From: an uncultured bacterium | GTDB lineage: Bacteria; Bdellovibrionota_C; UBA2361; JANWWW01 | Length of the DNA: 38,833 bases | Assembly: GCA_938038205.1 (NCBI GenBank) | Contig: CALHSA010000013.1 | Span: forward strand, 1 to 38,833 | Direction: 5' to 3' | Shown: in pieces, positions 1 through 37,544 of the stretch | Position numbering within the stretch: position 1 is the first letter of the stretch | Layout: the number at the start of each line of letters is the position of its first letter | Made by a program: the position numbers and the translations under genes | The notes under the pieces: generated by a model | Database searches by the model: none | What the model saw: the letters and a program-made list of their open reading frames with translations, nothing else | Told to the model about the DNA's origin: nothing

Positions 1-1047
1 TTTATACTCTTTAATCTTAATGCAAGACCAGGAGCAGGAAGCAGTGCATCAAGAGCATTAGCAATTCAGCTACTAGGGTTCTTTGTTAGCCCTCAAGCAG
101 CAAAAGACAGAGTTCTTATAGCTAGATTAGGAGATATTATCCTGAATAACAACTATGATTTAGGCGCCGTTTTAAAGATCTTATTAAAATCTGAGCTCAT
201 TTTTGCCCCAGAGTATTCACAGAAAATTGTTAATACCCCATTTGAATGGGCACTGAAGATCTCTAGAGCTATTAAGTTTCCTCAACAGTATTATAAACTT
301 CCAGGTTCTAATTGGTTTACTCTCATAAACACCTTAGTACGGATCTATGAAGGATCAGGTTACCCAAATTTAAAAATGCCCAGCGTTTTTGGGGTTCCAG
401 TAGCGGGAACTCAGAGATTCTTAAATGTTTTTGATGGATCAGGATTTATAAGTGCATCGAATGTGATCGCAAGACAAAGAGAATTAGCCAATCTCCTGTC
501 GTATTTCAATATGACTTTTATGTTAGCAGGCAATCCCCAAGACAATGAAAGATACATAACAATAACCCCAAAATGGAATGGGGATAGGATTGAATCAGAA
601 ACTACTAGATACCTACCTAAAAAAGATTCATGGGATGGTACATTTTACCACGATCAACTGATGGCCAATTTCTTGCTTTTTGGACCTTACTTACCTTATG
701 AGCCTGAGGATTTTTATCAAAGATACGCTTTATACAGCGGAAGGAATTTCAGGTACTATGATTACCTAGCTTCTGAATTTGATGTAAATAATCCTGAAAA
801 TCTTATTCGAGAGCTAAGTTTAAGACTTGGTGTTCCATTATCATCTCAAAGGTTTGAAAAAATAAAACACTTTTTCAGTAATATATTTAACAAAACTTGT
901 TGGGGATCAGATGGGCCTCAGTTTAGATCTGTATCAAATAATGGCATAACATTATCAGCTGAGGAAATTAAAAAGAGATACTTCGATGCAAAATTTGTAA
1001 GTATTTTATTCGCCATGGCTACCATGCCAGAGGCTTGGTTGAAATAG
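1..1047 (+). CDS. DUF1800 family protein, C-terminal part (5' end outside window)
   Basis: The reading frame is open from base 1 to the TAG at 1045-1047, so only the C-terminal 348 or so residues are present. The start codon lies upstream of the window; the in-frame ATG at 376 is internal. The visible part carries features typical of DUF1800 C-termini: a TPFEWAL segment, a PSVFG.PVAG segment resembling the family's conserved 'P.VFG' region, and a closing AMATMPEAWL. Family knowledge: DUF1800 proteins are exported proteins of unknown function, usually encoded directly upstream of a DUF1501 protein. That is the case here, with a 6-nt gap. The pairing is what makes the assignment fairly firm. 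No catalytic function can be stated. Confidence 0.75.
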   Translation, partial: FILFNLNARPGAGSSASRALAIQLLGFFVSPQAAKDRVLIARLGDIILNNNYDLGAVLKILLKSELIFAPEYSQKIVNTPFEWALKISRAIKFPQQYYKLPGSNWFTLINTLVRIYEGSGYPNLKMPSVFGVPVAGTQRFLNVFDGSGFISASNVIARQRELANLLSYFNMTFMLAGNPQDNERYITITPKWNGDRIESETTRYLPKKDSWDGTFYHDQLMANFLLFGPYLPYEPEDFYQRYALYSGRNFRYYDYLASEFDVNNPENLIRELSLRLGVPLSSQRFEKIKHFFSNIFNKTCWGSDGPQFRSVSNNGITLSAEEIKKRYFDAKFVSILFAMATMPEAWLK

Positions 1048-1053
1048 ATTTTT

Positions 1054-2823
1054 ATGAAAAACAGAAGAGAATTTATTGTTAATACAGCTGCAACAGCCCT
1101 TTCAGCAATGATGGGGAATCCTGTTGTACTTTTAGGCCAAGAATCAGCAAACCCTACTATTACCCTGTTTATCTTTTTTAGAGGGGGTAGTGATGGCCTA
1201 GCTATGTTCCCTCCAGACCCAAATAATCAAGCAAACTCAGCACTTATAAACTTCTTAAGAGAGGGGTATAGAACTTCTAGAAGCGAGGCCTTTAAGCGTC
1301 CAGATTTATTAATACCGGATCAAACTAGTAACAGCAACCCTTACTCTGCTCAAGATATTTTTAGTTTAGGAAGAGGAAGTCAGTTAGGCTTACACCCTGC
1401 ATGGTCTAGACTTGCTAAGCCACGTTCAAGTAACTCTTCAAACAGAAACAACCCAATTCAACCATTAACGGTGAATGGAAGATCACTAACTGATTATTTA
1501 GTATTTCGGCTTCTAAAAGGAGTAGGGATGCTTCATTTTTATGAAAATACTACTTTAAGAAACATCAGAATTAATAAAAGTCATTTTGATACTCAATCAA
1601 TGGCCCTTTTAGCTTCAACATCAGCTGCTTCGGGAACAGGTTTTTTAGCAAGATCTGTTTATTTTAATCCTGGTTGCACAAATGATTTGTCATCAAAACT
1701 TAGACTTGTTGCATTTAACACCTTTTCCAATAACGAGCTAGGGGTTATTAATAATTGTGGTGAAATTGTAAGAATTCCAGGCTCTTTTAATGCATTTGGA
1801 GAGGGCTACCCAGCAACACACCCTGGATTTCCACTTGCAGGTTGTACAAGCTACCAGCAAACGGAGAGAAGCATTTATAATAGATGGAGTGCACAACAAG
1901 AGCTTCGAAATTTAATTAATGAACTTAGAAATAGTGCTGAAGCCGATCTTGCTCTTAGTATTAAAGAATCTTATGATCGAGCAAGCACATTTCACTCATT
2001 TTTTTCAAACTTAAATAGCAGTAATCTATTACGATTATCTTCGGAAGAAGATCAGCAAGACATTATCAATAGATTTAGAGGAATGGAATATGTAAGAAAC
2101 AATGATGTTTGGGAGGGAAGATTCCGTAACCAAAATAGTATTACAAATCAGTTCATGAATATATGTAGCTTTATATTGTCCTCTGATTCTAATGATTTCC
2201 CTAGAAATAATGTCACAATAGCTTTATCAATTGGAGGGTTTGACACCCATGCAAATCAGCTAAGAGATTTACCAGGTTTGATAGCTGATGTGGCTGGAGG
2301 TTTACATGGCCTCTTTTATACCATACTTAACAAGAAGCCTGCTTTAATGGATAGACTTAGCGTCTATATCATGACTGAGTTTGGAAGAACAATTAGGCAA
2401 AACTTTGCTCAATCCACTGATCATGGGTGGGGTAATATCCTTTTTGCTATATTTGGTCGATCAACACCACTTAATGATAATCAAAGATTAGACCGGGAGG
2501 TCGGACCCACTTTCTTAGTCACAGGTAGTGATGGAGTTGCAGATAGTACGCTAAATACACAAGCGTATGATTATGCACGGAATATTGAAACAACTCACTT
2601 AGATCTTGATCCAATGCACATTTATCCAAAGGTAAGCATGCACTCAGGATTAGCTTTATTACTCTCTCGCGCTTTAGGAATAAATGCATCTCGCCTTGAA
2701 ACTTTTTTAGATCAAACTATGGATCATCGATTTTACAAAAGAAATTTTATACTCGATGGTGACCAAAAGGTACTTTGGACACAGTTTCTTGAGGGAATAC
2801 CTTTCTGGGATCCACGAGTTTAA
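1054..2823 (+). CDS. DUF1501 family protein with Tat-type signal
   Basis: 589 residues. The N-terminus has a twin-arginine motif (NRREFI, residues 3-8) followed by a weakly hydrophobic Ala-rich stretch, which points to export of a folded protein by the Tat system. Family landmarks are an FRGGSDGLAMFPP segment after the signal, GGFDTHANQ near residue 397, MTEFGRTIRQN near 440, and DHGWGN shortly after. These match DUF1501, a family related to the alkaline phosphatase/sulfatase fold with His and Asp residues that could bind metal. The gene starts 6 nt after the DUF1800 stop and has no clear Shine-Dalgarno, so translational coupling is likely. The biochemical role is unknown. It converges with the YceI-like gene only 7 nt downstream. 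Confidence 0.85.
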   Translation: MKNRREFIVNTAATALSAMMGNPVVLLGQESANPTITLFIFFRGGSDGLAMFPPDPNNQANSALINFLREGYRTSRSEAFKRPDLLIPDQTSNSNPYSAQDIFSLGRGSQLGLHPAWSRLAKPRSSNSSNRNNPIQPLTVNGRSLTDYLVFRLLKGVGMLHFYENTTLRNIRINKSHFDTQSMALLASTSAASGTGFLARSVYFNPGCTNDLSSKLRLVAFNTFSNNELGVINNCGEIVRIPGSFNAFGEGYPATHPGFPLAGCTSYQQTERSIYNRWSAQQELRNLINELRNSAEADLALSIKESYDRASTFHSFFSNLNSSNLLRLSSEEDQQDIINRFRGMEYVRNNDVWEGRFRNQNSITNQFMNICSFILSSDSNDFPRNNVTIALSIGGFDTHANQLRDLPGLIADVAGGLHGLFYTILNKKPALMDRLSVYIMTEFGRTIRQNFAQSTDHGWGNILFAIFGRSTPLNDNQRLDREVGPTFLVTGSDGVADSTLNTQAYDYARNIETTHLDLDPMHIYPKVSMHSGLALLLSRALGINASRLETFLDQTMDHRFYKRNFILDGDQKVLWTQFLEGIPFWDPRV

Positions 2824-3679: not shown

Positions 3680-4048
3680 TTACCCATCTCCTGACTCTTC
3701 AAGAATTTTAAATTTTAGTCTTCTATTAAAAAGCTTGTAACCATAAAAATTCAAGAACCAGCCTACAACCCAATCAGCCTCAAATGTCACTTTGCCAGGA
3801 CTCCAGCTAATTCTAACATTGTCAAACGTTACAGTCTCAAAATCTCTCAAAATATCTCTAACTCTCAACTCAACATCTTTCTCACTTAGAGCAGTTGCTA
3901 ATCTTGATAATTGTGCCAACTGCGCTCGTAATTCATAGAATTCGTAATATATTTTAGCCAGCTTAATACCATCTCGAATTACTGGTATAAATACAATTAA
4001 AAAAAGAATCAAACCTGCTACACTAAAGCCCCCTTTAGAGCGTTTCAT
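3680..4048 (-). CDS. Small membrane protein, DUF4845-like
   Basis: 122 residues. A basic N-terminus (MKRSKGGFS) leads into one hydrophobic segment (about residues 10-25). A helical region rich in Leu/Ala follows (about 30-55), then a short beta-rich domain ending in FNRRLKFKI. The layout of a KGGFS start, one membrane helix and a small extracytoplasmic domain with a repeated acidic/hydrophobic pattern resembles DUF4845 proteins, which often look like pilin-type or signal-peptidase-adjacent proteins. This is a pattern match only. The gene overlaps the end of the O-antigen-ligase-like gene by 14 nt, so the two are probably co-translated. Function unknown. Confidence 0.6.
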   Translation of the reverse strand: MKRSKGGFSVAGLILFLIVFIPVIRDGIKLAKIYYEFYELRAQLAQLSRLATALSEKDVELRVRDILRDFETVTFDNVRISWSPGKVTFEADWVVGWFLNFYGYKLFNRRLKFKILEESGDG

Positions 4049-5210
4049 AATTACCCTCAGTTTTACTTCTAGATATCTTCAGAATAAAATAACACAAAAT
4101 AAGATTAAGTAAATATTCACTATCTTGATAGTTGCTCTCAAAAAAACCACTAAGCATAAAGTACCAAATTAAAGGTTTTTCTTGAGTTGAGGATCTTTTT
4201 ACTAAGTAAAAAAGAAAGAGCAAAAATATAGCTAATCCAAAAAATCCATTCTCAACAAGTACATTCACGTAATTACTATGAAAATGTCGCAAATTTGAAT
4301 AGTTAGCAGGTAAATACTCTCTTATTCTGTCAGCATTACCGTAACCCAAACCTAACGGATTATCCATAGCCATTTTAAAACCTTGCACCCAAATTAATAA
4401 TCTTGGATCATCAAAAAAATCTAGTCTTTGAGTCGATGTAAAAACAACGATTAAAGTAGAAAGAAAAATTATTAGAGTGTAAAACTTTTTAAAAGAGTTC
4501 CCACTTGTGCTCACAAACTCATGCAGCAACCAAGAAAAAACGAAAGATATAATAGGTCCTCTTTTGCCAATGAGTAGAAAAGGATAAACTAATACTAAAA
4601 ATGCATAGTTTGTTAATAAGCCAGATACGATTAATTGATATAAACTAATCAAAATAATACAAAAAAAAAGAAAAAATAATATTCCATCCAGCACTAAAAA
4701 TTTTTTCGATACACCAATTAAAAGACCTATTAACAAAAAAATAAATACATTAGCTCTTTTCAAATTTCCCGAGATTAAAGATATAGAGGCTATACCCAAA
4801 ACGCCCGCGGCTGTCATATCTCCAAAGGTAAATTTAGGAACAATAGGAATTAGCGCCTCTAAAGTATAAATACAGGCAGAAATTAACACTGCTATGAAGT
4901 AAATTTTTTTTATGTCAATCACATCTTTCTCATAAATTAACTTTAAAACAGGCAGTAGTGAAAAAATTAAAAAAAATTTAAAGAGGTATCTAATTGCTTC
5001 ACCAGAAAAATTAAGAGGCAAGATGAAAAGTATTAAATTTAATAAACAAAGAGTCTGAAATCCTCTATCATCTTTAAAGTAACTCCATACTTGATTCGGA
5101 AATTTTATTAGCATACCCATTAGCAGGATACAGTATGAAAAATAAAAGAAAGGTAGATTAATTGGTGCTGCTATAAGTGTCAAAAAGGAGAAAAACCTTA
5201 TAACTTGCAT
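4035..5210 (-). CDS. O-antigen ligase / polymerase-like membrane protein
   Basis: 391 residues, almost entirely hydrophobic, with roughly ten membrane segments. The characteristic loop is near residues 275-320: GLGYGNADRIREY, then FHSNYVNVLVENGFFGLAIF. This matches the Wzy_C/O-antigen ligase signature (H-S/N-x-Y followed by E-x-G-x-x-G-L). Family members transfer or polymerise undecaprenyl-linked glycans on the periplasmic side of the inner membrane, such as WaaL on lipid A-core, Wzy, or protein O-oligosaccharyltransferases. Which one this is cannot be told from sequence. The start overlaps the oleD stop by 13 nt and the end overlaps the DUF4845-like gene, so it is embedded in the oleBC-oleD operon rather than in an O-antigen cluster. 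Confidence 0.8.
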   Translation of the reverse strand: MQVIRFFSFLTLIAAPINLPFFYFSYCILLMGMLIKFPNQVWSYFKDDRGFQTLCLLNLILFILPLNFSGEAIRYLFKFFLIFSLLPVLKLIYEKDVIDIKKIYFIAVLISACIYTLEALIPIVPKFTFGDMTAAGVLGIASISLISGNLKRANVFIFLLIGLLIGVSKKFLVLDGILFFLFFCIILISLYQLIVSGLLTNYAFLVLVYPFLLIGKRGPIISFVFSWLLHEFVSTSGNSFKKFYTLIIFLSTLIVVFTSTQRLDFFDDPRLLIWVQGFKMAMDNPLGLGYGNADRIREYLPANYSNLRHFHSNYVNVLVENGFFGLAIFLLFLFYLVKRSSTQEKPLIWYFMLSGFFESNYQDSEYLLNLILCYFILKISRSKTEGNYETL

Positions 5211-6160
5211 AAATTCTTTAAACTAAAATTTAATTTCTCAAAAACATTTCCTCCTGGGTTGTAGAGTAAAATATCTTTTGCTCTAGAGATATCAAAAAAA
5301 TGATGACGGAGCAAATGCTCAATTAAAGTTCTGGTTAAACCAATTGAGTTAGGGAAAAAATTCAGTTTTATCTCTTGAACTACAGCAAAGGTTTTAAGAA
5401 TAAGCTCAGGAATCGGAAAAACCGGGAGTGATAAGTTTAAAAATTTAGCTATCTTATCAATAAATTGCCAGATAAACACAGGGTTATCACTCGATATAAA
5501 AAAAATTTGAAATCGAGGATTATACTCTGTTGCTACATATTTTATAGCTCGTAAATGAGCATCTACGCAGTCATCAATAAAGGTAAAATCGACAAGGAAA
5601 TCCTCTTTTGTAAATTTAAAGAGTTTCTTAGTTTTAAGAGCTGTTATTATTGAAGGTAATAAATTTGTATCACTTGGTCCAAAAACTAAATGTGGTCTAA
5701 GTATCACACACTTTAATCCTGAACATAAAACCGCTTTTTCGGCTAGAATTTTTGTCTTTGCATACCAAGATTTTGGCTCTTTAGCATAAGGTAAATTCTC
5801 ATCTCCATAAAAAATATGATCTCCATCAAAAACGACACTAGGGGAACTAGTAAATACAAAATTTTCCACCCCTGCTTCAATCGCTGCTTCAATAAGTTTA
5901 TTGGTGCCAATAACATTTGATGAATAAAAACTTGCATATCCTCCAGAGAAGCCAACTCTGGCTGCAGTGTGAACTATACAATCAATCCCTAAATTTCTTA
6001 AAGCATTTTTAGGCAGCTCTGATAAGTCACAAATAATCTCTTTTACTTCAAATCCAGATCTTCTTCTGCTAAGGCTTATAACATCGTAGCCAGCTCTTAA
6101 TAATGCTTTTATTAAATTAGAACCTATGAATCCAGTTCCACCCGTTACTAAAACTTTCAT
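5198..6160 (-). CDS. oleD: OleD-type NAD(P)H-dependent 2-alkyl-3-oxoalkanoate reductase
   Basis: 320 residues, an extended short-chain dehydrogenase. The nucleotide-binding motif TGGTGFIG sits at residues 6-13 and the catalytic YxxxK at Y133/K137. OleD-like landmarks are HTAARVGFSG (64-73), TSSPSVVFDG (104-113) and LRPHLVFGPSD (154-164). In the known pathway OleD reduces the beta-keto acid made by OleA to a beta-hydroxy acid, which OleC converts to a beta-lactone. The gene starts with an ATG sharing one base with the oleBC stop (TGATG), so the two are translationally coupled. Neighbouring oleBC raises confidence; alone it could also be called a sterol-type 3-beta-hydroxysteroid dehydrogenase. 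Confidence 0.85.
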   Translation of the reverse strand: MKVLVTGGTGFIGSNLIKALLRAGYDVISLSRRRSGFEVKEIICDLSELPKNALRNLGIDCIVHTAARVGFSGGYASFYSSNVIGTNKLIEAAIEAGVENFVFTSSPSVVFDGDHIFYGDENLPYAKEPKSWYAKTKILAEKAVLCSGLKCVILRPHLVFGPSDTNLLPSIITALKTKKLFKFTKEDFLVDFTFIDDCVDAHLRAIKYVATEYNPRFQIFFISSDNPVFIWQFIDKIAKFLNLSLPVFPIPELILKTFAVVQEIKLNFFPNSIGLTRTLIEHLLRHHFFDISRAKDILLYNPGGNVFEKLNFSLKNLCKL

Positions 6161-8307
6161 CAGATTAAATCTCGTAATTTTGATCTCAGGGTTTTTGAGT
6201 TATGTCTAAGATCACGTGGAATTTGTTTTACAAATTTAACTTCCACATCTTTACCTGTTATATCTTTAACCAATTTTTTAACTTCTTCATTTTTAATAAT
6301 CTCAGAGGTAAAAAAATAAATTTTTCCATTATCGTGAATCGTAACACACTCAGATATGTTGAGATTCTCCATTAATTTATCCTCAAGCTCGTAAGGAAAA
6401 TAATTTCCAAATGGATCACAATCATCTTTCCTTCCTAGTATAAATAGGTTGCCGTTTTCCTCTCTAACAATATCACCCATTCTATGAAAAATACATTCAT
6501 TCACTTTCACTTTTAATTCTTTATTTAAAGATTCTACTAAGTATTTTTGGCTAATGTTCTTTCCATGAACTAGCAACTCTCCTTCCGGATTAATTCGATA
6601 CTCTACCAATGGCTTGCCGATAAAAAGTCCAGGCCCTGGCTGAAGAGACTGTTTAAGATCATAAAAACTTACTGGCAAAGCTTCTGTACTACCGTAAGCA
6701 CCTATAATGTTAAATCTACTTCTCTCTAGTATCTTTTTTACAAAAGAGCGGTATAATGGAGCCCCGGATATTATACCCTTTTTAATAAAACTTAGATCCT
6801 CACTTTGGATTAAAGAGGCATCAATTAATCTTTGCCAAAAATATGTTGAGCCAAAAATGTGTGAAACCTGATGAGTAGTAATAATTTTTACAAGGTTATC
6901 ATAATTGTAGTCAGTTACTTGACTTTTTCCCTTAATGAACAAAGAAGCTCTACCCAAGAATAAATTGAATATAAAAAAAGCATTCGTTACTGGAAAATCA
7001 ACTCCGTAGCCATCCATGTTTAAATAGCTTTTGAATATTCCCAATTGAGTCAAAACCATTTCTTCCGTAAAAACGACAGGCTTCGGTACTCCAGTTCCAC
7101 CAGATGTAAAAGCAACAAACAAAATATCGTTAGGGACTTCTACCTGCTGTCTATTTAGATTGCTCCCATATAACTTACCAAAGCTAAATAAATATTTTTT
7201 AATTTTTAAACCGAAAACTTCGAGTAGGTGGCTTAAAAACCAGCCCTTTATTGAGGTTAATATTTTCAGGTTAGGGATACTTTTAAGAGCTAATATTAGA
7301 TTTTTGAACTCAATTTTAGGATCAATTAAGACTGGAATAACTCGCTCACGTAAACAAGCTAAAAAAACCGGAACAAAAGTCGACCATGGCCGAATTGCAA
7401 GTAGAAGAAATTGATTTTTTAAACCATGTTTTCTTAATTCTCTCTGAATTTTGTAGGTTTTAACATCTAAATCTTTAAAACTTAAATATGAGGAATTAGA
7501 CAGATCTGCCTCGATAATTGCAGGTAAGGACTTAAGACTTCTAATCTGATCATCAAACAAATCTAAAAGTTGAGAACCCTTATTAAACTCACTCTTATTT
7601 ATAAACTTCACTAACTCGCTCTTACTCTCATTTGACAATTCGCCCGGGACAAAATGACCGGATTCAATAATGTAGGTACTTGAATTTAAGAATTTGCTTT
7701 TAAGATCTACAAGGTGCTCAACCTTCAAACAAGGATCTTTTAAGCCCCAAAATATTAAAGTAGGAATCTCAAAAATTTTAGCCCTATAAGCATCAAGATA
7801 TACCTTTGCAAGAAAGGTAGGTAGATTCGTTGAAGGAACGAAAGATATATATTTACTGACATTAAAAATTTTTGAACTTAAATATGGTCTTAAAATAGTT
7901 AAAGGATTTCTTGCGTTGAGAGCCGCTAAGAAAACAAAAATTGGACCAGTTGCTGGGAACTTGCCAAAAAATCTTAACCAGTTGGGTAGCTTATTAAACT
8001 CTCCGATAGCCGTGTTGAAAAACACCATGTTCCTTATTTTTGGTCTCCAAATACTTGCAAGAAAAATACATACAGGGACACCCCAATCATGACCAATCAA
8101 AGTAAATTCGAAACTCTTTTCAAATATGTCTTTAACTTGAACTCGAACGCATTCAAAAACATCCCCAACACTCTTCGGAGTAGCCTCCTGGGAGAAACCT
8201 AGGCCAGGAAGATCAACAAAGAATTTTTCTGAATTAAACTCCTTAGCAAGATCTTGAAAGATTAAAGGTGAACCCGGATTTCCGTGAACGAAAAGTACCG
8301 CTTTCAT
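6160..8307 (-). CDS. oleBC: OleB-OleC fusion: beta-lactone decarboxylase fused to beta-lactone synthetase
   Basis: 715 residues in two domains. Residues 1-235 are an alpha/beta hydrolase of the haloalkane-dehalogenase type, with HGNPGS (8-13), a nucleophile elbow GHDWG with Asp74 in place of Ser, WGLKDP (acid Asp191) and SGHFVPGE (His218). This is the OleB arrangement. Residues 250-715 are an acyl-adenylate-forming enzyme, with TSGGTGVPKP (401-410), YGSTEALPVS (538-547), HRMGD (608-612), LGRKDD (624-629) and a C-terminal IPRDLRHNSK (696-705) close to the RHNAK signature of OleC. In characterised systems OleC closes a beta-hydroxy acid to a beta-lactone and OleB decarboxylates it to a cis-olefin. 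Fused OleBC proteins are known from some Actinobacteria such as Micrococcus. OleA is not in this window. Confidence 0.88.
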   Translation of the reverse strand: MKAVLFVHGNPGSPLIFQDLAKEFNSEKFFVDLPGLGFSQEATPKSVGDVFECVRVQVKDIFEKSFEFTLIGHDWGVPVCIFLASIWRPKIRNMVFFNTAIGEFNKLPNWLRFFGKFPATGPIFVFLAALNARNPLTILRPYLSSKIFNVSKYISFVPSTNLPTFLAKVYLDAYRAKIFEIPTLIFWGLKDPCLKVEHLVDLKSKFLNSSTYIIESGHFVPGELSNESKSELVKFINKSEFNKGSQLLDLFDDQIRSLKSLPAIIEADLSNSSYLSFKDLDVKTYKIQRELRKHGLKNQFLLLAIRPWSTFVPVFLACLRERVIPVLIDPKIEFKNLILALKSIPNLKILTSIKGWFLSHLLEVFGLKIKKYLFSFGKLYGSNLNRQQVEVPNDILFVAFTSGGTGVPKPVVFTEEMVLTQLGIFKSYLNMDGYGVDFPVTNAFFIFNLFLGRASLFIKGKSQVTDYNYDNLVKIITTHQVSHIFGSTYFWQRLIDASLIQSEDLSFIKKGIISGAPLYRSFVKKILERSRFNIIGAYGSTEALPVSFYDLKQSLQPGPGLFIGKPLVEYRINPEGELLVHGKNISQKYLVESLNKELKVKVNECIFHRMGDIVREENGNLFILGRKDDCDPFGNYFPYELEDKLMENLNISECVTIHDNGKIYFFTSEIIKNEEVKKLVKDITGKDVEVKFVKQIPRDLRHNSKTLRSKLRDLI

Positions 8308-8357: not shown

Positions 8358-9266
8358 GTGTTTTGTAATGCGAAAAGTGATTTTTACGAAATTTCTAGGA
8401 AAAAAAGTAAAAATTTACCTAAACCACCTTGGATAAAATCAGTTGCTCCTGGAAGCCCTAAATATTTGGAAACTTTATCAATCGTTAGACAGTACAATCT
8501 TAATACTGTCTGCCAGGAAGCAATGTGCCCTAATATCGGTGAATGTTGGGGGAACAGAACTGCAACATTCATGATTATGGGAGATTTATGCACGAGAAGA
8601 TGTAATTTTTGCTCTGTAAAAAAAGGTGATTCCACCACTTTGCTACCTCTGGATCCTCTTGAACCGAAAAGAGTTGCTTTAGCTGCAAAGTTGATGGGTA
8701 TAAAGCATGTTGTAGTTACATCAGTTAACAGAGATGATTTACCTGATAATGGAGCACATCATATTGCAGAAACTGCTAATTGGATAAAACATGTAAACCA
8801 TGATGCATCTGTTGAGCTATTGATCCCTGATTTACAAGGTCAACTAAAAGATCTAGAAATAATAATGAAAAGTAATGTTGATGTTCTTAATCATAATCTT
8901 GAAACAGTACCATCTTTATACCGAAAAGTAAGGCCAGGTGCAGATTACCACCGAAGCTTAATGATTCTAAGGGAAGCAAAAAATTACAAGCCGAATGTAA
9001 GAACAAAAAGTGGGATTATGGTTGGACTTGGAGAAAAAATTGATGAAGTTTTAAAAGTGATGGATGATTTAAGAAGCGTTGATGTCGATATCATAACCAT
9101 TGGCCATTATCTTCGACCAACTGAAAAACAAATGCCAGTCAAGGAGTGGGTAACCCCAGAGACCTTTAATTTTTACTCAATTGAAGCAAAAAAAAGGGGG
9201 TTCAAACATGTGGAATCAGGTCCACTAGTAAGATCAAGCTATCATGCTTGGAAGCATGTAGCGTAA
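8358..9266 (+). CDS. lipA: Lipoyl synthase
   Basis: 302 residues. Two iron-sulfur sites are clear: the auxiliary-cluster cysteines C52, C57 and C63 (CQEAMCPNIGEC) and the radical-SAM motif C78-x3-C82-x2-C85 (CTRRCNFC). The C-terminal RSSYHAW contains the serine that ligates the auxiliary cluster in the family. LipA inserts two sulfurs into protein-bound octanoyl groups to make lipoyl cofactors for pyruvate and 2-oxoglutarate dehydrogenases and the glycine cleavage system. The start is a GTG at 8358; the nearby ATG at 8368 is out of frame, and upstream purines (GAGATAG) are a weak binding site. The gene is divergent from oleBC with about 50 nt between them. No lipB is in view. Confidence 0.95.
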   Translation: MFCNAKSDFYEISRKKSKNLPKPPWIKSVAPGSPKYLETLSIVRQYNLNTVCQEAMCPNIGECWGNRTATFMIMGDLCTRRCNFCSVKKGDSTTLLPLDPLEPKRVALAAKLMGIKHVVVTSVNRDDLPDNGAHHIAETANWIKHVNHDASVELLIPDLQGQLKDLEIIMKSNVDVLNHNLETVPSLYRKVRPGADYHRSLMILREAKNYKPNVRTKSGIMVGLGEKIDEVLKVMDDLRSVDVDIITIGHYLRPTEKQMPVKEWVTPETFNFYSIEAKKRGFKHVESGPLVRSSYHAWKHVA

Positions 9267-33300: not shown

Positions 33301-34176
33301 TTAATTACCAAGCCCAGTTGTAATCTGTTTAAACAACGTAAATCCTAAGCCGTAGACTAATATTATTAGAAAACTAAATACCATCATAGCTACAACTAAA
33401 ACTCCTTTCAAAGGCAGTTTCTTAATTTTTTCATCAATTTTAACCTGCCTTTGATGAGTAACACTTTTAGCTATCTCCATTAGTTGTTTTGATATCTCGC
33501 CGCCATGCTTATAAACTTGTCCAAGAGCTAAAAAACAATGTTTCAATTCAACATTTCTAGATAATTTCCCAACCTCTAGTAACGCCTCATCAAAAGGTAT
33601 TCCTTGTCTACTAAGTTGAACTGATAATTTTAAAAACTCCGTTACTACATTATTAGTTCCTCGTTCGTCAGCTAGATCAATTACTAATTGAATACACGGA
33701 CCTATGTCTAATGAACTGGACACTCCAATAGCAATTTGCTCTATAACTATCGGTAAATAGTAAGATATCTCATCCTGACGCTGAATTGTCCTTTTTCGCA
33801 AATAAAAATGCGGATATAAAAACCCTAAAAGAGCACCTAAGATCCCTGCGGGTATCAAAAAGTTTTTACCAAATACTAAGTAAGAGAAAAAAGCAAAACT
33901 TAAAAAACCGATCGCTGGACTAAAAGCCAGAATGAAAAAAAATTTTCTAAGCTCAACATCGCTTATTATCCCAGCTTTAAAAAGTTTCTCCTTAAAAGAA
34001 GTTTTGTTAATTTTTTTGGTAATTTTTTCTTCTTTTACGCTAGTGCTCCGAACTTCCTCAGTTGTTCTTTTTACAGGCCGCTGAACAAAACTTTTCGATT
34101 GTGGAGTAGCAGCCACATATACATACCCAGCAAGACTCAACCCAAGAAGAAGAAATATGACACCAACGATAATCAT
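33301..34176 (-). CDS. tadC: Tad/Flp type II secretion-like inner-membrane platform protein TadC
   Basis: 291 residues from the ATG at 34176, which shares one base with the tadB stop (TGATG). A membrane helix at the start is followed by a basic, Thr/Lys-rich stretch, then paired membrane segments (about 85-130) and the GspF/T2SF domain containing EQIAIGVSSSLDIGPCIQLV and LGQVYKHGGEISKQL. A last hydrophobic helix closes the protein. TadB and TadC form the inner-membrane platform on which pilin is assembled. The gene is in the standard cpaF-tadB-tadC order. Confidence 0.9.
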   Translation of the reverse strand: MIIVGVIFLLLGLSLAGYVYVAATPQSKSFVQRPVKRTTEEVRSTSVKEEKITKKINKTSFKEKLFKAGIISDVELRKFFFILAFSPAIGFLSFAFFSYLVFGKNFLIPAGILGALLGFLYPHFYLRKRTIQRQDEISYYLPIVIEQIAIGVSSSLDIGPCIQLVIDLADERGTNNVVTEFLKLSVQLSRQGIPFDEALLEVGKLSRNVELKHCFLALGQVYKHGGEISKQLMEIAKSVTHQRQVKIDEKIKKLPLKGVLVVAMMVFSFLIILVYGLGFTLFKQITTGLGN

Positions 34177-35120
34177 CAAATTTTAATCCTTACTAAGTTT
34201 CTAAAAATAAGCATTGCCGTTAGATTAATAACAATTACAAAGTGGAATACAGCTCTACCAAAATTCGTCGAGATAGCCTCGGCAAAACCCTCAAAGGTGT
34301 ACACGAATAAAAACAAACAAAGTAGAAAAGCACCTGCAACAACCCACATAGAAGCCTTAGCCTGAGCTAATGCAGCTTTTGCCTCTAATTGAAAAGCTGT
34401 CTTTCTCCGGACTAACGCTGCTAATCTCTCTAGCGAGTCAGCTAAGCTTCCTCCAAACTTTTTTCCAGCAAGTAATATCTGGACAAAAGTCTCAACTATG
34501 GGTGAATAAATCGTGTCACCAAATCTACTGAGAGCTTTTTCCTCATTAAAACCATTTCTTACAGCCTCAATAAAGCTCTCAACCTCCTTTCTTACAAGGC
34601 TGTTTTCCTCAAGAACTTTTGCAGCCCCCTCCAAAGCTAACATCGGTGCAACTCCCGTTTTAAGTAAACTTACAGTGCTCATAATAAAGTGAGCGAAATC
34701 TTGCTCAAACATCCTCGCTTTACGCTCTACTAAAAAATCTAAAACGCCTCTACATAACACTGGGCCTAAAAAAATGGAAAAAATAACAAAAGGGATCGAT
34801 AAAAAAACGTAGCTAAAAACCATCAAGCCAAGAGATAAACCAAACTCAATTAAATGAAAGACTGAGCGTGGAATATTCCACCCTGCACAGTAAAGTTTTT
34901 TCTCTAGGTCTCTTGCGAAATCAGTTCTATCTCTTGATATGGACCCCTCCAAAAATTCAAGTACAGAATCTGATTCAGACTTTAGTGTACCAAGAGTTTT
35001 TCTTTGAACTGATCTATAGTTAATTGAAGCTTTAGATGATATCCGCTCTGTATTTACTCTGAAACGGTAATATCCAAAAAGAACAAGCGAAACAAAAATT
35101 ACAAAAATAAAGAAAATCAT
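34176..35120 (-). CDS. tadB: Tad/Flp inner-membrane platform protein TadB
   Basis: 314 residues. The start overlaps the cpaF stop in an ATGA junction. An N-terminal membrane helix is followed by a cytoplasmic region, two more helices (about 85-125), and a T2SF domain with SLLKTGVAPMLALEGAAKVL and LAGKKFGGSLADSLERLAALVRRK. Two C-terminal hydrophobic helices follow. It is the partner of TadC in the platform. The GKKFGGSL segment is similar to the corresponding GspF-type motif in TadC (KHGGEIS), as expected of paralogues. Confidence 0.92.
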   Translation of the reverse strand: MIFFIFVIFVSLVLFGYYRFRVNTERISSKASINYRSVQRKTLGTLKSESDSVLEFLEGSISRDRTDFARDLEKKLYCAGWNIPRSVFHLIEFGLSLGLMVFSYVFLSIPFVIFSIFLGPVLCRGVLDFLVERKARMFEQDFAHFIMSTVSLLKTGVAPMLALEGAAKVLEENSLVRKEVESFIEAVRNGFNEEKALSRFGDTIYSPIVETFVQILLAGKKFGGSLADSLERLAALVRRKTAFQLEAKAALAQAKASMWVVAGAFLLCLFLFVYTFEGFAEAISTNFGRAVFHFVIVINLTAMLIFRNLVRIKI

Positions 35121-36562
35121 GAGCCAGACTGATAAACTGGATTAAATACACCAGTTTTCGGATTTGATGTAAATGTTATTTCAGAAGGCCAATCACCCAA
35201 GAATATCCCATCTTTTGCTAGTTGATGATCAAAATTACTTGTCCACGATTCAATCCTCCAAATAGGTTTTTCGCCACCTTGAATTAACCTGAACATCGGT
35301 CTTACCTGAATCTGGCCTTCTACAAAATGACCCACTTCGATAATTTCACCAATCCTAACTTTTCCGCTACCTTTTTCTCGAAATAACCAAACTATACAAT
35401 CAACTGCTAAAGCAATTTGTTGTCTTAAAATATCTAAAGATACATTTTTCTGTGCTCTTCCTAATAAACTTTCAAGCCTAACGAGTGTTTCTTTTGCGTT
35501 TCTTGCATGCACTGTTGTCATACCAACGTGACCCGTCTGAGCTGCTTCCAAGAATGCCTCCGCAGCCTGAGGGGTCCTCATCTCACCAAGGATCACTCTT
35601 GTTGGCGTCATTCTAAGAGTGGTTCGAATATGCTCTTGGAGAGTTACTTCCCCTTGACCTTCGATATTAGGCGGCCTAGAGACTAAAGACCTAAAGAATG
35701 GGTGTTGAAAATTCACCTCAGGAGTATCCTCAACTGCAACTATACTTTCATCATTTCCAAATTGAGTCCCTAATGCTCTTACCAGCGTTGTCTTACCGGT
35801 TCCCGTTTCACCAGCTACAATTAAGGTGGCTTCTCTACTCCTTACCAATGAAGCTAAGTAATAAATTACGAGAGGGGGCGCAACCTTGTAATTAATCAAA
35901 GTTTCTAACGTAACTGTTGATATTCTCGGGATTCTTATTGAGAGTAGGGGACCTCTGCTACCACATACGCTCTCATGTATAGCACAAATTCTTATGCCGT
36001 TTGGAAATGCCGCATCAACTGTATGTTGTTGCGTTGAGAGATTTTTACCTAATTTCAAAAGTAATCTATCTAAAAAAGCAACATATGCTTGATGGTTTGG
36101 CCATTGTAGACCTGTAAGTTCAGAGCTTTTACCCCTCTGAATAACAACTGTTTTGTAATCATATACATGAATATCCGTGACCTCTTTGTTCTCAATTAAG
36201 GGCTGCAGAACCCCCCAACCAAGGAGATCTTTCTGTAAAAGGACAATTATTTGAGCCTTCTCTAAATCATCAAGACTTTCACCTCTTTTCTTTAAGACTC
36301 TATCTATAGCATGCGATATTACAGAATCAGATATTGTTCCAGTATACGAGGAAACATCTAGCCCTAATTCTTTACGAGCCTCTCTCATAACTGTCATACC
36401 CAGGGCGCTAAGAGGCTTTGTTATAGAAGCTGACGAGGTTACTGTTTCTGTATTCTGCGAAGTTTGATTTACTTGTGTTGTCGTACCTGTTGAAGTTGTT
36501 CCTTCATTCGATAAAGTTCTAGTGGAGAAAAGACTAAAGAGTTTTGATTTATTACTGTCCAT
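35117..36562 (-). CDS. cpaF: CpaF/TadA-type secretion ATPase
   Basis: 481 residues, ATG with a GGGAG site close upstream. The N-terminus (21-50) is Ser/Thr-rich and probably disordered. The ATPase core has Walker A GETGTGKTT (251-259), the acidic VEDTPEVNFQ, Walker B VILGEMR and the His box TTVHARNAKE. Such ATPases drive assembly and sometimes retraction of Flp pili in the Tad system. tadB and tadC follow with 4-nt and 1-nt overlaps. The enzyme is complete and the motifs intact, so an active motor is likely. Confidence 0.95.
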   Translation of the reverse strand: MDSNKSKLFSLFSTRTLSNEGTTSTGTTTQVNQTSQNTETVTSSASITKPLSALGMTVMREARKELGLDVSSYTGTISDSVISHAIDRVLKKRGESLDDLEKAQIIVLLQKDLLGWGVLQPLIENKEVTDIHVYDYKTVVIQRGKSSELTGLQWPNHQAYVAFLDRLLLKLGKNLSTQQHTVDAAFPNGIRICAIHESVCGSRGPLLSIRIPRISTVTLETLINYKVAPPLVIYYLASLVRSREATLIVAGETGTGKTTLVRALGTQFGNDESIVAVEDTPEVNFQHPFFRSLVSRPPNIEGQGEVTLQEHIRTTLRMTPTRVILGEMRTPQAAEAFLEAAQTGHVGMTTVHARNAKETLVRLESLLGRAQKNVSLDILRQQIALAVDCIVWLFREKGSGKVRIGEIIEVGHFVEGQIQVRPMFRLIQGGEKPIWRIESWTSNFDHQLAKDGIFLGDWPSEITFTSNPKTGVFNPVYQSGS

Positions 36563-36614
36563 GCTCCCTATAATTTAGATTATAAACCAGTAGTTTTCTT
36601 TCAAATGCCATATT

Positions 36615-37544
36615 TTACTCTTGTAATTTGTAAGCTGGCACCAATTCACCGTCAATCAGATAAAACGCTTGATCCCCTATTTTAACAATACCATCACCTC
36701 TTTTTATCTTACTATCTGGATTTGAGGTTTGCCGGCCAAGCAGGTCATCGATAGTTAATGCTGTTTTTATACCAGAGGAGCTTACATCGGAATCTCCTCG
36801 CAGTAACAAGCTTAATGTACCAGTTGTAGCAGCTAGCTGAATTTTTGCAGCATCTTGAGAAGTAACTAACAAAGTTACTGTACTTGGAACTGAGGCACCC
36901 ATAGGAGTATTAGAATCCACCTGTCTTTCTGCCGATAAAACTTTGGCATTCTCAACAATTGTAGTCAAGCCTTGCTTGCCGCCTATGTGACCAACCCATA
37001 AAACATCTACGTTTGCTCCAGGTCTTGCCCAACCCTCTACTGAACTTGTTTCATTAACCCTAATAGTAACCGCTCTATACCCCTCTGGAATGTTTGCTGT
37101 TATAAGATTTGTAGGCTTACTACTAACTATGTGCTCTTCTGTTACTATCATGCCTTGAGTTAGAGAAACCCTAGCATATTTATCAGCAATCTGATCCACC
37201 GAAGTTATAGTTCCCTTTGGAAGAGTGCTACCTAAACGTTTTTCAAATCTAAATAGTGAGCTATTAAGCTGCTCACCAACCTGTATATCTCTAACTGGTA
37301 CTAAAACAGAAACTAAATCTTCAATTGGCTGAACTGAAACAGTTGTACTTGGCTGTTTTTCAGAGCCTGAAAGTGTAAAGGAAATAATACCCAAGCCAAG
37401 AGACACAATTATTCCCGCTAGAATTAGTTGCTTTTTTGGGTTATTCTTTTCGATTCGGGCTCCAAAACGACTGGTTGAAATTGGCATTCCGTTCTTAGTT
37501 ATATTCGGATTTACCCTTAAAAATCTTAAGATAATTTTTCCCAC
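36615..37544 (-). CDS. cpaB: CpaB/RcpC-like Flp pilus assembly protein with SAF domain
   Basis: 309 residues with a GTG at 37544; an in-frame ATG at 37487 (MPISTSRF) is a good alternative. A membrane helix lies at about 37-57. The SAF domain (about 75-140: VLVPVRDIQVGEQL, LFRFEKR, LPKGTITSVDQIADKYARVSLTQGMIVTEEHI) is followed by the RcpC domain (about 145-235: GYRAVTIRVNETSSVEGWARPGANVDVLWV). The C-terminal 60 or so residues are a short tail. In Tad systems this protein stabilises the periplasmic/secretin part. cpaF is 52 nt downstream, and mutS is divergent, 45 nt away. Confidence 0.9.
   Translation of the reverse strand: MGKIILRFLRVNPNITKNGMPISTSRFGARIEKNNPKKQLILAGIIVSLGLGIISFTLSGSEKQPSTTVSVQPIEDLVSVLVPVRDIQVGEQLNSSLFRFEKRLGSTLPKGTITSVDQIADKYARVSLTQGMIVTEEHIVSSKPTNLITANIPEGYRAVTIRVNETSSVEGWARPGANVDVLWVGHIGGKQGLTTIVENAKVLSAERQVDSNTPMGASVPSTVTLLVTSQDAAKIQLAATTGTLSLLLRGDSDVSSSGIKTALTIDDLLGRQTSNPDSKIKRGDGIVKIGDQAFYLIDGELVPAYKLQE

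What the first reader, a model, noticed from the sequence alone, without database searches (positions are those of the whole stretch)
5198..8307. Fused OleB-OleC plus OleD in an LPS-bearing bacterium, without OleA in view
The 715-aa protein carries an Asp-nucleophile OleB domain (GHDWG) and an OleC adenylating domain (YGSTEALPVS, RHNSK) in one chain, translationally coupled to OleD by a TGATG junction. OleBC fusions are best known from Actinobacteria, while Gram-negative ole clusters usually have separate genes. With OleA missing here, the pathway either has OleA elsewhere or uses another source of the beta-hydroxy acid, perhaps ending in a beta-lactone rather than an olefin.
Basis: partly seen in the sequence, partly recalled or inferred. 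Interest (0 to 1): 0.65.

Follow-up and report, generated by a model that had tools for sequence, protein, structure and literature searches.

The report
Fused OleBC enzyme, oleA relocated
A small-genome, outer-membrane bacterium carries a shortened, fast-evolving version of a two-in-one enzyme that makes long-chain hydrocarbons; the supposedly missing first enzyme is elsewhere in its genome, so this looks like a known pathway, although the fusion turns out to be the rule in this whole bacterial class rather than an actinobacterial speciality.

Summary
One 715-aa ORF (window 6160-8307, minus) joins an OleB domain (HLD-III-like fold, Asp74/Asp191/His218) to an OleC domain, and overlaps oleD by one base. 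OleA is not missing. It lies on another contig of the same genome (G000:C10:8436-9512), scores above the NCBIfam cut-off, best matches the X. campestris OleA structures, and carries the EP...NAC signature. Its closest sampled relative has the same split. In the rest of the class the order is oleA-oleBC-oleD, so oleA was relocated in this family. The fusion is not an oddity here: 28 of the 32 class genomes with OleBC have it fused, and it also occurs in Planctomycetota and other diderms. That corrects the 2020 statement that it is limited to Actinobacteria plus Granulosicoccus. OleA and OleD, and OleC less firmly, place this pathway in the class clade rather than with actinobacterial fusions; OleB cannot be placed. 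What is unusual is the enzyme: the OleB half lacks its ~35 N-terminal residues and several otherwise invariant residues, and is the only Ole protein evolving faster than a LepA control predicts. The most likely product is still a cis-olefin, not a beta-lactone. Activity and product are untested.

The parts
6160..8307 (-). oleBC, 715 aa, fused OleB beta-lactone decarboxylase and OleC beta-lactone synthetase
7588..8307 (-). OleB domain, residues 1-240 (HLD-III-like alpha/beta hydrolase, N-terminally shortened)
   Evidence: Pfam PF00561; modelled alone pLDDT 85.5; best PDB fold matches subfamily III haloalkane dehalogenase DhmeA 8ooh/8ckp
8086..8088 (-). codon of OleB nucleophile Asp74 in HDWG
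   Evidence: D in 99% of 97 other OleB sequences
7735..7737 (-). codon of OleB catalytic acid Asp191
   Evidence: 100% conserved; role by family knowledge
7654..7656 (-). codon of OleB catalytic His218
   Evidence: 100% conserved; role by family knowledge
6163..7572 (-). OleC domain, residues 246-715 (ANL adenylate-forming enzyme)
   Evidence: PF00501, class OleC HMM 521 bits over 246-715, model matches ANL ligases in PDB
6673..6696 (-). OleC motif YGSTEALP (residues 538-545)
   Evidence: Y, G, T, E, L, P conserved in 97-100% of 97 other OleC
6193..6195 (-). codon of Lys705 in RHNSK, the putative A10 catalytic lysine
   Evidence: K 100% conserved
5198..6160 (-). oleD, 320 aa SDR; GGTGFIG nucleotide motif, Y133-x3-K137; overlaps oleBC by one base (TGATG)
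4035..5210 (-). Wzy_C (O-antigen-ligase-like) membrane protein, overlaps oleD by 13 bases; same neighbour in relative G001
   Evidence: operon membership inferred
3680..4048 (-). 122-aa protein with one hydrophobic N-terminal stretch; same neighbour in G001 (117 aa); unknown function
8358..9266 (+). divergent lipoyl synthase (lipA), boundary of the ole operon; same in G001
   Evidence: named from sequence

Best explanation
This is the OleBC-OleD part of a complete head-to-head olefin pathway of the OleABCD type. OleA, encoded on another contig, condenses two fatty acyl-CoAs to a 2-alkyl-3-keto acid. OleD reduces it with NAD(P)H to the 2-alkyl-3-hydroxy acid. The OleC half of the fusion adenylates the carboxylate and closes the beta-lactone. 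The OleB half uses Asp74 (with His218 and Asp191) to decarboxylate the lactone to a cis-internal olefin that would sit in the membrane. The fusion is an inherited feature of this class; in this family oleA left the operon and the OleB half was shortened and reshaped. Shown here: gene content, fusion, motifs, fold, relatives and synteny. Inferred from characterised homologues: each reaction step, the product and its location.
For: OleA gene at G000:C10:8436-9512: 318 bits against the NF006720 cut-off of 285; best PDB match 3row group, E 4.5e-53, with aligned active-site Cys, His and Asn and EPATS; signature EPxx[AS]x(14,18)DxxNAC[I for L]. G001 has the same oleBC-oleD locus and an OleA 66% identical beside the same kinase gene. 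All 19 class fused loci outside this family with upstream DNA have oleA directly upstream. OleA and OleD of the window fall in the class clade with starred support, OleC too in a quick tree. The OleB and OleC catalytic residues are kept in both family members. The OleB model resembles HLD-III, the subfamily that contains OleB (PMC10503415). A FadD-like ligase beside a fatty acid desaturase could supply acyl-CoA.
Against: OleBC and OleD score below all curated Ole cut-offs, whereas a typical class OleBC passes one of them. Several residues invariant in other OleB are lost: W13, G77, the cap F-x-D-I-P motif and the N-terminal strands. OleB is the one component diverging faster than the LepA control predicts. 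I know of no chemistry done on any member of this class.
Confidence: 0.82

Rival explanations
1. The OleB half has lost decarboxylase activity or changed substrate, and the pathway stops at a beta-lactone or a hydrolysed product.
For: N-terminal truncation; loss of W13, G77 and the cap motif in both family members; OleB distance relative to LepA 2.55 against 1.85 in the rest of the class.
Against: Asp74, Trp75, Asp191, His218 and HGNP are intact in two genera whose OleB domains are only 44% identical; the fold models confidently (pLDDT 85.5).
Confidence: 0.1
2. The fused OleBC was acquired from Actinobacteria by horizontal transfer.
For: In the OleB tree the family groups with the actinobacterial fusions (87 SH-aLRT, both on long branches); for OleC the AU test does not formally reject that grouping (p 0.079).
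Against: OleD, coupled to OleBC, sits in the class clade (96/100), as does OleA; the OleC quick tree puts it in the class clade (96 and 100); OleC sites that separate the two groups favour the class 4 to 1.
Confidence: 0.07
3. OleA is absent from the active pathway and another enzyme supplies the beta-hydroxy acid.
For: oleA is not linked to oleBC-oleD in either family member; the assembly is about 81% complete.
Against: A clear OleA is encoded, conserved (66% between genera) and evolves slowly relative to LepA.
Confidence: 0.03
4. The two domains are a generic hydrolase and acyl-CoA ligase unrelated to Ole.
For: Pfam sees only general families; sub-threshold NCBIfam scores.
Against: Best specific hits are OleC/OleD models; domain order, oleD coupling and class relatives are Ole throughout.
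Confidence: 0.02

Closest known systems
OleBC fusion of Actinobacteria (Micrococcales) and Granulosicoccus
   Same: OleB then OleC in one chain, with oleA and oleD (PMC7064751; actinobacterial loci)
   Different: Actinobacterial fusions are 800-1116 aa ORFs and form their own clade beside unfused actinobacterial OleC; the window protein is 715 aa with oleA unlinked
oleA-oleBC-oleD operons of the window's own class and some Planctomycetota
   Same: Same domain order and oleD coupling; OleA, OleD and OleC fall in one clade
   Different: Typical members are 822-926 aa with oleA upstream; the window OleB is about 22% identical to them, against about 59% among themselves
Xanthomonas campestris OleABCD (separate genes)
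   Same: All four activities encoded; OleA aligns to the 3row structure
   Different: OleB and OleC are fused here; OleBC and OleD score far below the Xanthomonas-trained cut-offs
oleACD beta-lactone clusters (lipstatin type)
   Same: OleA, OleC and OleD present
   Different: Those clusters lack oleB (PMC7064751); here OleB is present with its triad

Membership tests
OleA thiolase | Sequence above the curated PRK09258 (NF006720) cut-off | tested here: met
   318.2 bits against 285
OleA thiolase | Glu117-Pro and catalytic Cys signature EPxx[AS]x(14,18)DxxNACL (PMC7064751, PMC7158056) | tested here: met
   EPATS...DISNACI, with final L replaced by I; 73 of 87 OleA rows match [LI], 50 the strict L
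OleA thiolase | Non-decarboxylative Claisen condensation of acyl-CoA | not testable with these tools
   needs assay
OleBC fusion | OleB and OleC domains in one uninterrupted ORF | tested here: met
OleB beta-lactone decarboxylase (HLD-III) | HLD-type fold with Asp nucleophile, acid and His | tested here: met
OleB beta-lactone decarboxylase (HLD-III) | Residues invariant across 95-97 other OleB (W13, G77, cap FxDIP, N-terminal strands) | tested here: not met
   lost in both family members; whether these residues are essential is unknown, so this is not a known defining feature of the activity
OleC beta-lactone synthetase | TSGxTGxPK, YGxTEALP, GR, RHNxK motifs | tested here: met
OleC beta-lactone synthetase | Curated NCBIfam cut-offs (PRK09274 478; OlefBLtnSyn 850/900) | tested here: not met
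   153, 91 and 86 bits; a typical class member scores 538, 424 and 397
OleD reductase | SDR with GxxGxxG and YxxxK, nested in an OleD tree | tested here: met
   GGTGFIG, Y133/K137; class clade 96/100
OleD reductase | Curated NCBIfam cut-off 580 | tested here: not met
   180 bits; the class member L030 also fails at 337
OleABCD olefin pathway | All four activities encoded in one genome | tested here: met
OleABCD olefin pathway | Contiguous gene cluster | tested here: not met
   oleA on another contig in both family members; usual but not a defining necessity
OleABCD olefin pathway | Long-chain cis-olefin produced | not testable with these tools
   needs lipid analysis

The most novel reading that the evidence does not exclude
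In this reduced-genome family the OleB half has been rebuilt: a minimal HLD-III domain without its first two strands and with a different pocket, either acting on different chains or no longer a pure decarboxylase, so that an OleBC fusion makes a product other than the usual olefin.
Probability: 0.12. Interest if true: 0.6.

Novelty: new variant of a known kind. Interest (0 to 1): 0.33.

Why it matters
It corrects a published picture (fusion confined to Actinobacteria and one Granulosicoccus) by showing OleBC fusion as the normal state in a whole diderm class, with several apparently independent fusion events elsewhere. It also offers the shortest OleBC seen here (713-715 aa against 800 or more), a natural test of which parts of OleB the beta-lactone decarboxylase needs. 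In practice it is a hydrocarbon pathway in an uncultured lineage, not a new chemistry.

Tried and rejected
The idea that OleBC as a whole is accelerated, suggested by 22-26% identity to class relatives, was largely rejected by the LepA control: the family is fast overall (LepA 55% against 75%), OleC is normal, OleA and OleD are slow, and only OleB stands out. The first LepA script failed on a too narrow motif. A plasmid search for OleBC gave only distant actinobacterial and other hits. Apparent whole-length hits in the genome-contig scan were not taken as fusions until ORFs were checked; many were adjacent separate genes. In Planctomycetota, of three one-piece hits among 199 genomes two contain a stop and only one is fused. 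Foldseek on the full model returned only ANL enzymes among the listed matches, so OleB was modelled and searched alone. The AU test of OleB with the class did not finish. The original OleBCD-complex paper PMC5388818 is not held.

Full report
What is in the window. The 715-aa ORF at 6160-8307 (-) and the 320-aa ORF at 5198-6160 (-) are as described. They share the A of TGATG. A TAG five codons upstream of the oleBC ATG, and lipA starting 51 bases further up on the other strand, leave no room for a longer N-terminus. Pfam finds an alpha/beta hydrolase at residues 3-220 and an AMP-binding domain at 255-590. NCBIfam's most specific hits are OleC-type ligases and OleD, all below curated cut-offs, which already signals a divergent member.

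OleA is in the genome. A search of the window's own assembly (1.22 Mb, 46 contigs, about 81% complete) for the KAS III C-terminal domain gave two genes. The one at C10:8436-9512 is OleA: 318 bits against a cut-off of 285, best sequence match among solved structures to the 3row/3s1z group, E 4.5e-53, with Cys, His and Asn aligned (that these are X. campestris OleA structures is from my own knowledge), and the published signature EPxx[AS]x(14,18)DxxNACL with only the last L replaced by I. The other, on C7, is FabH-like. The genome also encodes a FadD-like ligase beside a fatty acid desaturase, so acyl-CoA supply is plausible.

Relatives. The only other sampled genome of the family (G001) has the same block: small protein, Wzy_C-like protein, oleD, fused oleBC, divergent lipA. 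Its OleA is 66% identical and on another contig. In both genomes oleA follows the same APH-type kinase gene. Among 46 genomes of the class, 32 have a match to the OleBC model; by my reading of the table, 28 are fused, two (G023, G029) are separate genes and two are fragments. All 19 fused loci outside the family with DNA upstream have oleA directly before oleBC. So fusion appears ancestral in the class, and the split of oleA is a derived trait of this family.

Fusion elsewhere. In a scan of genome contigs the ORF check found fused OleBC also in Planctomycetaceae, one Opitutae, and singly in records named Syntrophaceae, Spirochaetes, Nitrospirae and Planctomycetota. In a sample of 199 Planctomycetota genomes 77 had ole hits, but only one true fusion appears in the table. 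Actinobacterial fusions (12 loci) form one clade beside unfused actinobacterial OleC. The fusions L057/L069, L071 and L083 fall among unfused genes. The fusion thus appears to have arisen several times; losses by splitting are not excluded. PMC7064751 (2020) called Granulosicoccus the first case outside Actinobacteria. PMC13170169 (2026) already lists oleBC (KEGG K25044) annotations in many phyla, without examining gene structure in the passages I read.

OleA (careful tree): window and G001 are sister to class member G003 at 99/98, in a class-plus-Planctomycetes clade at 99/98. OleD (careful): class clade at 96/100. OleC (quick): class clade at 96 and 100 SH-aLRT, on a branch of 3.9 changes per site. 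OleB: unplaceable, with a weak pull towards actinobacterial fusions. The AU test did not reject an OleC grouping with actinobacterial fusions (p 0.079), and diagnostic OleC sites favour the class 4 to 1. Vertical inheritance is best supported, by OleA and OleD above all.

What is unusual. The OleB half has lost about 35 N-terminal residues and parts of the cap. Of residues at least 93% conserved in 95-97 other OleB, the HGNP, HDWG, N98, T99, P141, W187-G188, D191 and H218 positions are kept in both family members, while W13, G77, the cap F-x-D-I-P motif and others are lost in both or nearly so. Corrected against LepA, OleA is slow in this family (distance ratio 1.51 against 2.26 in the rest of the class), OleD slow (1.71 against 2.30), OleC normal (2.28 against 2.50) and OleB fast (2.55 against 1.85). 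These ratios come from simple distances that saturate, and from one family, so they are indicative. The modelled domain (pLDDT 85.5) still matches subfamily III haloalkane dehalogenases best, the subfamily to which X. campestris OleB is assigned (PMC10503415).

Mechanism. By homology: OleA condenses acyl-CoAs, OleD reduces, OleC forms the beta-lactone, OleB decarboxylates it to a cis-olefin (pathway as stated in PMC7158056). Intact triad and ANL motifs in two genera argue for activity. The chain lengths, the product and any BCD complex are unknown.

Verdict. A real fused OleBC with OleD, a complete pathway, and a new compact variant of a known enzyme. Interest is moderate to low: a useful correction of a distribution claim and a natural minimal OleB, but no new chemistry shown.

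Noticed in passing
window 3680-5210 (-); L027 1139-2703: A Wzy_C O-antigen-ligase-like protein and a ~120-aa protein with one hydrophobic N-terminal stretch follow oleD in both family members (overlapping ends in the window); a possible pilin and its glycosyl ligase, or a lipid-linked surface function.
   Followed up: partly
L047 7350-8384; L133 1451-2515: An APH-type (PF01636) kinase gene directly precedes oleA in both genomes of the family.
   Followed up: partly
L002 1495-3128: A FabH-like gene (327 aa) overlaps an upstream 218-aa ORF with no NCBIfam hit that may be a degenerate KAS III half.
   Followed up: no
L046, L049 (G029, G023): Two genomes of one family in the class carry separate oleB and oleC of a different clade, grouping with a record titled Deltaproteobacteria (L101), suggesting replacement by transfer.
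   Followed up: partly
L057 1792-3739; L069 1875-3824: OleBC fusions in records titled Syntrophaceae and Spirochaetes have two divergent OleA-like ORFs upstream (114/51 and 122/52 bits), perhaps a heterodimeric condensing enzyme.
   Followed up: no
window 376-2823: A DUF1501 protein preceded by a 223-aa ORF without a Pfam hit.
   Followed up: no
window 33301-37544 (-): A Tad-type pilus cluster (CpaB, CpaF and two TadB/C-like ORFs by my reading of the sequences).
   Followed up: no
L081, L117, L127, L132: Nitrospina-type records carry a stand-alone oleC without neighbouring oleA, oleB or oleD in the fetched DNA.
   Followed up: no
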